Source: an uncultured bacterium (GTDB lineage: Bacteria > Cyanobacteriota > Vampirovibrionia > Gastranaerophilales > Gastranaerophilaceae). From it: a stretch of DNA of 64,000 bases. Under the pieces are notes generated by a model, which searched no databases, had not been told where the DNA came from, and saw only the letters and a list, made by a program, of their open reading frames with translations. The translations under genes were made by a program, and so were the position numbers. Below, one piece after another: positions 43,636 to 47,000 of this stretch; position 1 is the first letter of the stretch; every line of letters begins with the position of its first letter. The stretch covers positions 62,001 through 126,000 of the forward strand of contig CATLLN010000004.1 in assembly GCA_950022695.1 (NCBI GenBank). Direction: 5' to 3'.

Positions 43636-46116
43636 TTATTCCCTGAATGAAATTTGAGCGTATGCTTTTTGGAGTTTTTCTCTAACGGATGTCATTTGTT
43701 GGTCGATAATTTCATCTGTTAATGTTGCATTCTCATCTTGCATAAAGATTCTGAACGCTACACTTTTAAAACCTTCTTCAACATGTTCGCCTTGATAAAC
43801 GTCAAAGATTTCAGAACCTTTAAAGATATTTTGTTTAACACCGCTTTTGATAACTTTTTGGATGTCATCGCAAGATACCGTGTCGTTGATTATGAAAGCC
43901 AAATCCCTTTTAACTTCCGGGAATTGAGGCAGGTGTTTAAATCTTGGAACAGTTTCTTTTACTGCGCCGATTACTTCATCTAAATCAACTTTGAATAAAA
44001 ATGCTTCCTGATTAAGCTTTAATTTGTCTTGAAGTGTCGGATGAATTTGTCCGAAATATCCAATAGGCTGAGGCTTTTTACCAAGTAATAAAACTACAGC
44101 GGTTCTATACGGATGGAAAATTTTATGTGTTTTAGAAAGTTCTGTTTCTTCAAGTGGAACAATTTTGATTCTTCTTGTAATTTGTAAATCTTCAAACAGA
44201 TTTTCAACAATACCTTTTACTGTGAAGAAGTCTGTTTTAACTGAGTTTTGCCATTTTGAGTTTTGAACTTCGCCTGTTAAAACACCTTCAAGTACAAGAG
44301 TTTCTTTTACTCCGGTATTTTTTTCATCAGCTTGGGCAACTTTCAGATAAGTTCTGCCGATTTCGTATCCCCAGAATGTTTTTTGACCGTTATCGAAGTT
44401 ATATTTCATACAGTTTAAAGCACTTGCGGCAAGTGTTTGACGAAGCATTGAATATTCTTCACTTGCTGCATTTGCAACTTTAACGGCATTTTCGTCATCA
44501 TATGGAATGTTGAATTTATCAAGTAGAGATTTTCCGATAAGCGAACTTGTTTGAATTTCATTTAAACCTGCTGAAAGCATAAGTTCATGTATTCTTTTAA
44601 TAACTTTTTCGCCTAATGTAATAACAGGAGTTTGTGATTTATTTGGAAGGGTTGGTGCGATTTTGTCGTAACCGTTAATTCTTGCGATTTCTTCGATTAA
44701 ATCAATCTCTCTTGTGACATCGTATGCTCTGAAACTTGGAACTAAGAATTTTGCTGCTGCATCGTTTCCGCCAAGTTTTTTGAATCCTAAGTTTTCTAAT
44801 ATATTAATACATCTGTCTGCTGAAATTTCGCATCCTAAGATTCTTTTAACCTGATTGTAGCGCAATGTGATTTCAATTGGTTCAAGTTTGTTTTCACCAT
44901 CTTCAACCATACCAATAACTTCGGCATCAGCGTATTCAACAAGTAACTGCATTGCACGCATAAGAGCCGGTTTTACTGATTCAATATCAATTCCGCGTTC
45001 AAATCTTGCAGAAGCTTCACTTCTGTAGCCTGCGCTTCTTGCAGATTTTCTGTTTGTTGCAGGGGTGAAGTATGCAGCTTCAAGTGCAATTGATGTTGTA
45101 TTATTGTCAATTTCTGAATTTGCTCCGCCAAATACTCCGCCTAAACAAACTCCTTCTTTTTCTGTTGCGATTAGAACAGAATCAGTTGTAAGTGTTCTTT
45201 CTACTTCATCTAAAGTAACAAGTTTTTCGCCTTTTTCAGCGCGTCTCACGCAAAGATATCCGTCAAGTTTATCAAAATCAAATGCGTGTAATGGGCATCC
45301 GTATTCAAGCATAACGTAATTTGTGATATCTACAACGTTATTGATTGCACGAACACCTGATGCTACAAGTCTTTTTTGCATCCAGTCAGGTGATGGTTTG
45401 ATTTTGATATTTTTCAAAATTCCGATTGAATAATATTTGCAGACATCTTTATCTTTAATTTCAACTTTGAATTTATTTGTTGATAAGTCTTTTGTGCATT
45501 CGATGGTATTTAGTTTCAAAGGTGTATCAAATAATGCACTTAATTCTCTTGCTACACCGATTACTGACATCTGATCACCGCGGTTTGCAGTCGGTGCAAC
45601 ATCAATAACTGTGTCTTTTTCATATCCTAAAACATCTTTAACGTCTTGACCTAAACCGACATTAGGGAAAATTCTGTTTAAAATAAGAATACCATCTTCT
45701 TCCTGATAACCGCGTTCAGAAACCCCGAGTTCATCAGCAGAACAAAGCATCCCTTGAGATTCAACACCGCGTATAACAGCAGGTGTTAATGTAAACATTT
45801 CACCTGATTTTCTGTCCAAAACTTGAGAACCAACGCTTGCGTACGGCACAATTTGACCTTCTTGAATATTTTGAGCACCGCAGACAACTGTTTTTAACCC
45901 TGAACCTGTATTAACTGTTACAAGGTGAAGTCTGTCTGAATTCGGGTGATTATCGATTTTTTCGATTTTAACTGTTTTTATATTGGTAAACATTGGTTTA
46001 ACGTCTTGGTAACCTTCAACTTCCAACCCGCTCATAGTAAGTTCGTGCGCGATTTGAGAAGTTTCGACATTTGATAAATCTACGAATTCGTTTAACCAAT
46101 TTAAAGATACTTGCAT
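43636..46116 (-). CDS. pheT: Phenylalanyl-tRNA synthetase beta subunit
   Basis: The 826-residue subunit has an N-terminal tRNA-binding EMAP-like domain (NHPNSDRLHLVTV, VVCGAQNI), the B3/B4 editing domain (SARSAGYRSEASARFERGID), the B5 domain, the catalytic-like core and the C-terminal anticodon-binding FDX-ACB domain (PRFKHLPQFPEVKRDLAFI). Length is normal. pheS is not adjacent on either side, which is unusual as the two are commonly in one operon. Confidence 0.97.
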   Translation of the reverse strand: MQVSLNWLNEFVDLSNVETSQIAHELTMSGLEVEGYQDVKPMFTNIKTVKIEKIDNHPNSDRLHLVTVNTGSGLKTVVCGAQNIQEGQIVPYASVGSQVLDRKSGEMFTLTPAVIRGVESQGMLCSADELGVSERGYQEEDGILILNRIFPNVGLGQDVKDVLGYEKDTVIDVAPTANRGDQMSVIGVARELSALFDTPLKLNTIECTKDLSTNKFKVEIKDKDVCKYYSIGILKNIKIKPSPDWMQKRLVASGVRAINNVVDITNYVMLEYGCPLHAFDFDKLDGYLCVRRAEKGEKLVTLDEVERTLTTDSVLIATEKEGVCLGGVFGGANSEIDNNTTSIALEAAYFTPATNRKSARSAGYRSEASARFERGIDIESVKPALMRAMQLLVEYADAEVIGMVEDGENKLEPIEITLRYNQVKRILGCEISADRCINILENLGFKKLGGNDAAAKFLVPSFRAYDVTREIDLIEEIARINGYDKIAPTLPNKSQTPVITLGEKVIKRIHELMLSAGLNEIQTSSLIGKSLLDKFNIPYDDENAVKVANAASEEYSMLRQTLAASALNCMKYNFDNGQKTFWGYEIGRTYLKVAQADEKNTGVKETLVLEGVLTGEVQNSKWQNSVKTDFFTVKGIVENLFEDLQITRRIKIVPLEETELSKTHKIFHPYRTAVVLLLGKKPQPIGYFGQIHPTLQDKLKLNQEAFLFKVDLDEVIGAVKETVPRFKHLPQFPEVKRDLAFIINDTVSCDDIQKVIKSGVKQNIFKGSEIFDVYQGEHVEEGFKSVAFRIFMQDENATLTDEIIDQQMTSVREKLQKAYAQISFRE

Positions 46117-46233
46117 TTATTTTCCCTCTTAATTTAAATTATAATCTATGTTTGTATTTTATTACAAAAGTAATTGTTTGTAAAATTCAAAAATATGATA
46201 TATAATTATTTGTAGTTAAAAAGGAGAAGATTT

Positions 46234-46949
46234 ATGAAAAACACTAACAAATTAGAAAAACGGGGGGGGGTAATTTCTTAAAGCTCTCCTTACAAGGCTT
46301 TACTTTAGCAGAAGTATTAATTACCCTAGGCATAATCGGTGTTGTTGCTGCGATGACAATTCCGGGATTAATAACTAAATATCAACAAATAAGAACAGAA
46401 ACCCAATTAAGAAAATTTTATTCGATGATAAATCAAACTGTAAGAATGTCATCTGCTGATAATGGCGAACCCGAAGGATGGAATTTAACCGCTGCAGAAC
46501 ATGATTATCATTATCATTTTAATATTTTAAATCAATATTTCCTTCCTTATATGAAATATTTAAAAGTCGAAAATTGTAAAACAGATCCTGATAATCCTAA
46601 TACAGCTTGCGTTTATTTTTTTGACGGCAGTGCTATGAGAGTGAAATTTGATCGCTTTGGCGGTACAATTAATTATTTTATTGACGGAGATTCTTCCCGT
46701 AGAATTGCGAAAAATTGGTTTTATTTTGAATTTCATATGTCTGAGAATGAGTATTCTCAACGTCTTGGTAATAAAAATTATGTTGTTCCCCGAACCTGGG
46801 GTGTAGGTATTGGAAAAGTCCCCAAAACACTGTCTGAATGTATGAAAAAGGGATGTAATAAAAATAGTATATTGTTTTGTACTAAATGTATTGAGTTAAA
46901 TAGTTGGAAAATTCCGAAAAATTATCCCTGGAATTCATCTTTGAAATAA
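46234..46949 (+). pseudogene. Type IV prepilin gene out of frame at a 9-G tract (probably phase variable)
   Basis: AAAAAGGAG precedes the ATG at 46234; the first nine codons are followed by C and nine G (46262-46270), then GTA ATT TCT TAA, a stop. Adding one G (or removing two) joins the start to LQGFTLAEVLITLGIIGVVAAMTIP, a full prepilin signature, and an uninterrupted frame to 46949 giving 238 (or 237) residues. The C-terminal SWKIPKNYPW matches the prepilin at 18149. The gene is thus either switched off by slipped-strand mispairing, or carries a base-count error in the tract. Product: minor pilin or pseudopilin. Confidence 0.8.
46262..46270. repeat. Homopolymer tract of nine G in a prepilin gene
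   Basis: A 9-G run is the longest GC homopolymer noticed in this AT-rich window and lies between the start codon and the prepilin cleavage site of the gene at 46234. The length decides the reading frame. Confidence 0.95.
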
Positions 46950-47000
46950 ATTTGATTTTACCTGTTATTTTATGTTACCATTTCATTAGAGGGTAGGAAT

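What the first reader, a model, noticed from the sequence alone, without database searches (positions are those of the whole stretch)
46234..46949. Type IV prepilin switched by a 9-G tract
Seen: the start and Shine-Dalgarno are out of frame with the prepilin signature by exactly one base of a nine-G run; ten (or seven) G give a single frame of 238 (or 237) residues. Known: G/C tracts at gene starts drive phase variation in many host-associated bacteria. Inference: pilin expression varies between cells. A long G run in such AT-rich DNA is itself striking.
Basis: partly seen in the sequence, partly recalled or inferred. Interest (0 to 1): 0.82.

Follow-up and report, generated by a model that had tools for sequence, protein, structure and literature searches.

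The report
Poly-G on/off switches on pilin genes
An uncultured gut relative of cyanobacteria carries a run of nine G's near the start of this pilus-protein gene and of at least 17 others, a copied on/off switch that probably lets each cell display a different, randomly chosen set of surface filaments, which matters because no such switching turned up in the literature searched for this group of gut bacteria.

Summary
Window 46262-46270 is a run of nine G, 28 nt after an ATG with a good Shine-Dalgarno, and the prepilin frame downstream is off by one base.

It is not isolated. The genome (a Gastranaerophilales/Melainabacteria relative) has 22 runs of exactly nine G. Eighteen sit 27-28 nt after the ATG of an intact prepilin gene, and all 18 are out of frame in the same direction. 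The same layout (Shine-Dalgarno, ATG, G tract) occurs in 114 of 286 genomes of the order.

In 103 of 103 tract loci, nearly all from the genus, the prepilin frame is open from tract to signature (2139 codons, 0 stops). Orthologues are under purifying selection (dN/dS 0.05-0.25) while tract length changes (G9 to G10, G11 or G12). All three frame states occur, even between near-identical copies in one genome. Assembly error and programmed -1 frameshifting fit poorly.

Best explanation: slipped-strand phase variation of a pilin repertoire. The switch sits in a leader that should be cleaved off and travels as a portable 5' module shared by pilins with unrelated bodies. Switching within a population is inferred; no reads were available. 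New variant of a known kind.

The parts
46220..46226 (+). Shine-Dalgarno AAAGGAG, 7 nt before the ATG
   Evidence: read directly; GGAG-type sites recur at the other tract genes
46234..46261 (+). 5' leader: ATG plus 25 nt before the tract (MKNTNKLEK)
   Evidence: length 28 nt (27 in L003) in all 18 tract prepilins of this genome
46262..46270 (+). G9 tract, the proposed switch
   Evidence: chance expectation 0.01 in the window
46234..46281 (+). 0-frame short ORF made in the nine-G (OFF) state: MKNTNKLEKRGGVIS*
46245..46247 (+). TAA that closes the prepilin frame upstream; no start codon between it and the tract in that frame
46272..46949 (+). prepilin frame after the tract (225 codons plus stop); PF07963, TIGR02532 and DUF6613 (PF20318) matches
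   Evidence: kept under purifying selection against G001 (dN/dS 0.10)
46296..46313 (+). class III prepilin signature G/FTLAE; predicted prepilin-peptidase cleavage between G (46296-46298) and F (46299)
   Evidence: the cleavage itself is inferred
46299..46946 (+). mature pilin (216 aa): long N-terminal helix 3-55 plus beta-rich domain
   Evidence: AlphaFold2 pLDDT 85, pTM 0.81; best though weak VIA-align rows are type IV pilins
43636..46116 (-). neighbour: pheT
   Evidence: TIGR00472, 780 bits
47001..47753 (+). neighbour: type I methionyl aminopeptidase (map). In G013 and G018 pheT and map are 144-162 bp apart with no pilin between them; in G000 and G001 the gap holds a tract pilin

Best explanation
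This is a translational phase-variation switch. Ribosomes start at the ATG at 46234 and read through the G tract. With nine G they stop after 15 codons (OFF). When DNA replication slips and the tract gains one G (or loses two), the leader joins the prepilin frame and the whole prepilin is made (ON). The glycines encoded by the tract lie upstream of the prepilin cleavage site, so if the leader is removed as in other type IV prepilins the mature pilin is the same whatever the tract length. Shown here: anatomy, frame relations, recurrence at 18 loci, open frames, purifying selection, tract-length change between orthologues and paralogues, and sharing of the 5' module (Shine-Dalgarno, leader, tract, signature) between pilins with unrelated bodies. 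Inferred: slippage during replication, cell-to-cell heterogeneity, cleavage of the leader, assembly into surface filaments, and a benefit in host, phage or surface interactions.
For: (1) 18 of 18 intact tract prepilins in this genome share the layout and the one-base offset. (2) In 103 loci of nine genomes (101 of them in the genus) the signature frame is open from the tract to the signature in 103 of 103 (2139 codons, 0 stops; 175 and 240 stops in the other two frames), and in the 14 loci of this genome that were checked there is no start codon in that frame just upstream. So the frame has to be entered through the tract. (3) Orthologues in G001 have dN/dS 0.05-0.25 although out of frame, and tract lengths change: L048 G9 / L221 G10 (in frame), L010 G9 / L219 G11, L050 G9 / L109 G12. 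(4) Near-identical modules inside one genome differ in tract length: G194 L402 G9 and L403 G11 (in frame) with identical 40-nt leaders; G001 L215 G10 (in frame) and L223 G9, 98% identical over 100 nt after the tract. (5) All three frame states occur: -1 67, +1 28, in frame 8; 13, 18 and 8 in other genera. (6) The layout is found in 114 of 286 genomes and 24 of 50 genera of the order, with a reversed-pattern control near zero in almost all genomes. (7) Direct precedent in a gut commensal: B. breve pilus genes, OFF in the reference genome and ON after a one-base tract change (PMC9187656).
Against: All 22 tracts of this genome are exactly nine long and all 18 pilins are off in the same direction, whereas a freely varying tract should put about a third in frame (naive probability about 0.001 for 18 loci; the loci are not independent because the module is copied). 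MutS is present, so slippage should be slower than in organisms without mismatch repair. One prepilin with only G7 (L025) is also out of frame, and G7 should be rather stable. No read-level polymorphism was seen because no reads were available.
Confidence: 0.8

Rival explanations
1. Programmed -1 ribosomal frameshifting (or transcriptional slippage) at the G run makes a fixed fraction of full-length pilin from a constant nine-G gene; no DNA change is needed.
For: In G000, G023, most of G001 and most of G009 the offset is the same (-1), and it is kept although leader and tract lengths differ: 28+9 in G000, 29+8 in G023, 31+9 and 30+10 in G009. G_GGG_GGG is formally a slippery heptamer. L025 is -1 with only G7.
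Against: G007 and many loci of other genera are off in the opposite sense (+1) and some are in frame. RNA folds around the tract in four genes are no better than shuffles (z 0.06 to 1.16). In E. coli G_GG.G_GG.U gave the lowest frameshifting measured, 0.018% (PMC4066793). Transcriptional slippage could not be tested.
Confidence: 0.1
2. Assembly or sequencing error: the true tracts are one G longer and the genes are simply ON.
For: All tracts in this genome have one length, and all are off by one base. These are consensus draft assemblies.
Against: The same assembly holds A10 runs and one A32. The error would have to act on G7, G8, G9 and G10 and in the opposite sense on G11 in G007. In-frame loci occur in the same assemblies of G001 and G023. 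Two coding C9 tracts of this genome, L009 and L013, read in frame at nine.
Confidence: 0.04
3. The out-of-frame genes are decaying pseudogenes or silent cassettes that serve only as recombination donors.
For: One decayed copy exists (L020). The 5' modules are shared among paralogues, apparently by recombination.
Against: Low dN/dS, full-length open frames, conserved Shine-Dalgarno and start, and an open frame kept even through a roughly 200-bp repeat insertion in the leader of the window gene's orthologue.
Confidence: 0.05

Closest known systems
Bifidobacterium breve UCC2003 sortase-pilus G-tract switch (bbr_0113, bbr_1889; PMC9187656)
   Same: Gut commensal, pilus gene, intragenic G tract between a start-bearing short ORF and the pilin frame, reference genome OFF, ON lengths of 10 and 9 G after a one-base change.
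   Different: Sortase pili with Sec signals in a Gram-positive, two loci in that strain; here class III type IV prepilins, 18 loci in this genome, tract in the leader that should be cleaved, shared module.
Neisseria poly-G/poly-C contingency genes (pilC, pglA, pglI, lgtA; PMC5953494)
   Same: Coding homopolymer switches, 15-19 poly-G tracts per genome and a modal length of 9 in meningococci and gonococci.
   Different: pilC is an accessory pilus protein; pilE pilin variation there is mainly by recombination with pilS, and repeat tracts were seen in only 23 of 607 pilS alleles. Here the prepilin genes themselves carry the switch.
Campylobacter / Helicobacter poly-G phase-variable surface genes (from my own knowledge, not tested here)
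   Same: Tens of G tracts near gene starts in AT-rich genomes of gut bacteria.
   Different: Mostly glycan and outer-membrane genes and no portable prepilin module; as far as I recall those organisms lack classical mismatch repair, whereas MutS is present here.

Membership tests
Simple-sequence (poly-G) phase-variable locus | Homopolymer tract near the 5' end of a coding region, far beyond chance | tested here: met
   22 runs against about 0.3 expected; 18 at prepilin starts
Simple-sequence (poly-G) phase-variable locus | Intact, selected frame downstream that only another tract length connects to the start | tested here: met
   103 of 103 open, dN/dS 0.05-0.25
Simple-sequence (poly-G) phase-variable locus | Tract length differs among alleles with otherwise conserved flanks | tested here: met
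   Orthologues and in-genome near-copies, G9/G10/G11/G12. Not tested among strains of this one species.
Simple-sequence (poly-G) phase-variable locus | Reversible length change at high rate within a clonal population, with matching change of expression | not testable with these tools
   no reads, RNA or culture available
Type IV prepilin (class III signal) | GF(T/S)LxE N-terminal signature followed by a hydrophobic helix | tested here: met
   PF07963 22.0 bits (cut-off 21.2), TIGR02532 23.3 bits (cut-off 16.3); helix 3-55 in the model
Type IV prepilin (class III signal) | Pilin fold of the mature protein | tested here: inconclusive
   VIA-align top rows are full-length pilins, but Z only 4.4 and 4.0; no Foldseek match at E 0.001
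Type IV prepilin (class III signal) | Pilus assembly machinery in the genome | tested here: met
   Four PF00437 (assembly/retraction ATPase) matches over the cut-off; prepilin peptidase not searched
Programmed -1 ribosomal frameshift gene | Frame relation conserved as -1 in homologues | tested here: not met
   28 '+1' and 8 in-frame of 103; 18 '+1' and 8 in-frame of 39 in other genera
Programmed -1 ribosomal frameshift gene | Stimulatory RNA structure after the slippery site | tested here: not met
   Folds no better than shuffles in four genes

The most novel reading that the evidence does not exclude
The switch is a mobile 5' cassette. Shine-Dalgarno, leader, G tract and prepilin signature are copied as a block by recombination between dozens of pilin genes with unrelated bodies (a block of about 170 nearly identical nt in L016/L017), so a cell could change which pilin is ON both by slippage and by pasting an ON cassette onto another pilin. 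That would join phase variation and gene conversion in one system.
Probability: 0.3. Interest if true: 0.78.

Novelty: new variant of a known kind. Interest (0 to 1): 0.62.

Why it matters
Gastranaerophilales are largely uncultured, non-photosynthetic cyanobacterial relatives found in animal guts, and little is known of how they meet their hosts or phages. A large, stochastic pilin repertoire gives a concrete answer that existing metagenome reads can test. It also shows the contingency-locus strategy, best known from pathogens, used on the prepilin genes themselves, with the switch in the part that should be cut off. It further warns that automatic annotation will miss the true starts of these pilins: in the genomes examined, most are out of frame with their start.

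Tried and rejected
Assembly cap at nine: rejected (A10 and A32 runs in the same assembly; other genomes hold G8 to G12). Internal start downstream of the tract: not needed to explain the data, and it would not explain why the frame is kept open back to the tract; I saw no ATG/GTG/TTG between tract and signature in the window gene. Missing mismatch repair as the cause of instability: MutS is present in 36 of 40 genomes, this one included; MutL was not searched. RNA structure at the tract: none. Selection for OFF as the default: in-frame loci are under-represented (8 of 103, naive p about 1e-9), but loci share copied modules, and in other genera the deficit is not significant (8 of 39, p 0.12), so I do not claim it. 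Foldseek against the PDB gave no match at E 0.001 or better. Literature: the one paper holding both 'Melainabacteria' and 'phase variation' is on flagellin diversity; of six papers with 'Gastranaerophilales' and 'pili' none has a title or abstract about phase variation, and I did not read them in full. Subscription journals are mostly not in the library.

Full report
WHAT IS THERE. Window 46220-46949 reads AAAGGAG, seven nt, ATG (46234), 25 nt, G9 (46262-46270), TAATTTCTTAAAG..., then a frame of 225 codons and a stop at 46949. From the ATG the 0 frame ends after 15 codons (MKNTNKLEKRGGVIS*); adding one G gives 238 aa. The long frame carries the prepilin signature GFTLAEVLITLGIIGVVAAMT (PF07963 and TIGR02532, both over cut-off) and a DUF6613 region. 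It has a stop 17 nt upstream of the tract and no start codon in between. The observation and the arithmetic are right.

IT IS ONE OF MANY. The window lies in a 1.95-Mb genome of 37 contigs. That genome has 22 runs of nine G (both strands), all exactly nine long, no run of eight or of ten and more, and five of seven. About 0.3 runs of exactly nine are expected. Eighteen of the 22 are 27-28 nt after the ATG of an intact prepilin gene and all need the same one-base change. One is a decayed copy (L020). Three are elsewhere: two coding C9 tracts that are in frame (L009, L013) and one at the end of a kdsB-like frame that resembles a leader relic (L015; the names are from my own reading of the sequence). 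The genome has 76 PF07963 matches, so roughly a quarter of its prepilins carry the switch; most tractless ones that I looked at have short leaders. One further prepilin (L025) has a G7 tract and the same offset.

TAXONOMY AND SPREAD. The layout Shine-Dalgarno, ATG, 20-36 nt, at least eight G occurs in 114 of 286 genomes of the order and 24 of 50 genera, nearly all in the same family. Several other genera have 20 to 46 matches on the forward strand alone. The reversed pattern is at or near zero in almost all genomes.

THE FRAME IS USED. For 103 tract loci (nine genomes, 101 loci of the genus plus two others counted with them) I took the nearest signature in any frame without asking for openness. 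Its frame is open to the tract in 103 of 103 cases: 2139 codons without a stop, against 175 and 240 stops in the other frames. Some leaders hold repeat insertions of about 200 bp and are still open; the window gene's orthologue in G001 is one. Between this genome and G001, the reciprocal-best tract pilins at 82% identity or more have dN/dS 0.05-0.25. The window gene's orthologue at the same pheT-map position is 87% identical and also out of frame, in the other sense, with a post-tract stretch that appears to lack seven bases.

THE TRACT CHANGES LENGTH. Orthologues differ: L048 G9 and L221 G10 (in frame), L010 G9 and L219 G11, L050 G9 and L109 G12 (L109 begins at a contig end). Copies of one module inside a genome differ: G194 L402 G9 and L403 G11 (in frame) with identical 40-nt leaders; G001 L215 G10 (in frame) and L223 G9. 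In one search 67 loci are '-1', 28 '+1' and 8 in frame; in other genera 13, 18 and 8. G144 loci are mostly in frame at G12.

RIVALS. A general undercount by the assembler would have to act on G7, G8, G9 and G10 and in the opposite sense on G11, while the same assembly holds A10 and A32. Programmed -1 frameshifting predicts a fixed direction and some stimulatory structure; neither is found, and G_GG.G_GG.U was the least shifty heptamer in E. coli (PMC4066793). The uniform '-1' state in this genome, and its preservation through compensating leader and tract lengths in G009 and G023, is the best argument for that rival, so I leave it 0.1.

WHY ALL NINE. Two observations soften the puzzle. First, the 5' module is shared between genes: L016 and L017 are identical from just before the Shine-Dalgarno through the signature (about 170 nt), with unrelated sequence on both sides; L004, L008 and L019 show the same with shorter blocks. 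Recent copying would homogenise tract lengths. Second, nine is also the modal poly-G length in meningococci and gonococci (PMC5953494). MutS is present, which should slow switching. This explanation is inference.

PROTEIN. AlphaFold2 on 25 relatives gives pLDDT 85 and pTM 0.81, with an N-terminal helix 3-55 and a beta domain. Foldseek finds no confident match; a VIA-align second look ranks full-length pilins first, but weakly (PAK pilin Z 4.4, rmsd 3.8, 117 aligned; FimA Z 4.0). Two cysteines are invariant in the 25. Four assembly-ATPase genes are present. One tract prepilin (L003) carries YadA-head repeats and an S74 chaperone domain, which fits an adhesin-like role; that is inference. Elsewhere in the family similar tracts precede FkbM methyltransferase frames (L357, L358, L359, in frame) and a hexapeptide acyltransferase (L362), so the switch type is not limited to pilins.

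COMPARISON. The mechanism is the known one of poly-G contingency loci. The nearest documented case is the B. breve sortase-pilus switch, also OFF in the reference and ON after a one-base change (PMC9187656). What differs is the target (class III prepilins themselves), the position (in the leader that should be cut off), the number, the shared module and the lineage. I found no report of phase variation in this group in the library.

VERDICT. Observation confirmed, interpretation supported. Confidence 0.8 in DNA-level phase variation, pending reads. Interest 0.62.

Noticed in passing
L016, L017, L004, L008, L019 (G000), around the tract: Blocks of 100-170 nearly identical nt (Shine-Dalgarno, leader, tract, signature) are shared by pilin genes whose upstream DNA and bodies are unrelated.
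   Followed up: partly
G000 L049, L055, L056; G001 L217; G009 L098; G023 L144: The prepilin signature is doubled, FTLAE-[10-15 residues]-GFTLAEVL, as if a repeat had inserted inside the signature and duplicated it.
   Followed up: no
L213/L324 (G001), leader between tract and signature: About 200 bp of palindromic repeat-like DNA sits in the leader with the frame kept open; it is absent from the window orthologue.
   Followed up: partly
window 46117-47000 against L333 (G018) and L336 (G013): The pheT-map gap is empty (144-162 bp) in two relatives and filled by a tract pilin in G000 and G001.
   Followed up: partly
L357, L358, L359, L362: In other genera of the family similar start-proximal G tracts precede FkbM methyltransferase frames (in frame) and a hexapeptide acyltransferase frame (out of frame), suggesting phase-variable glycan genes.
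   Followed up: partly
L003 (G000:C1, G9 at 242085-242093, minus strand): A tract prepilin of more than 400 aa with YadA-head repeats and a Peptidase_S74 chaperone domain, an unusual mix of pilin signal and trimeric-adhesin or tail-fibre parts.
   Followed up: no
L015 (G000:C4:30535-30543) and L097 (G001): The same G9-TAAC module lies at the end of a kdsB-like frame just before a second cytidylyltransferase-like gene, in both species.
   Followed up: no
JAMPCZ01 (G014): A public assembly titled Muribaculaceae carries the tract modules and is grouped in the same genus as the window; the title looks wrong. Many of its contigs end at the modules.
   Followed up: no
G000:C1:479385-479416: A run of 32 A on the minus strand, far longer than any other run seen in the assembly.
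   Followed up: no
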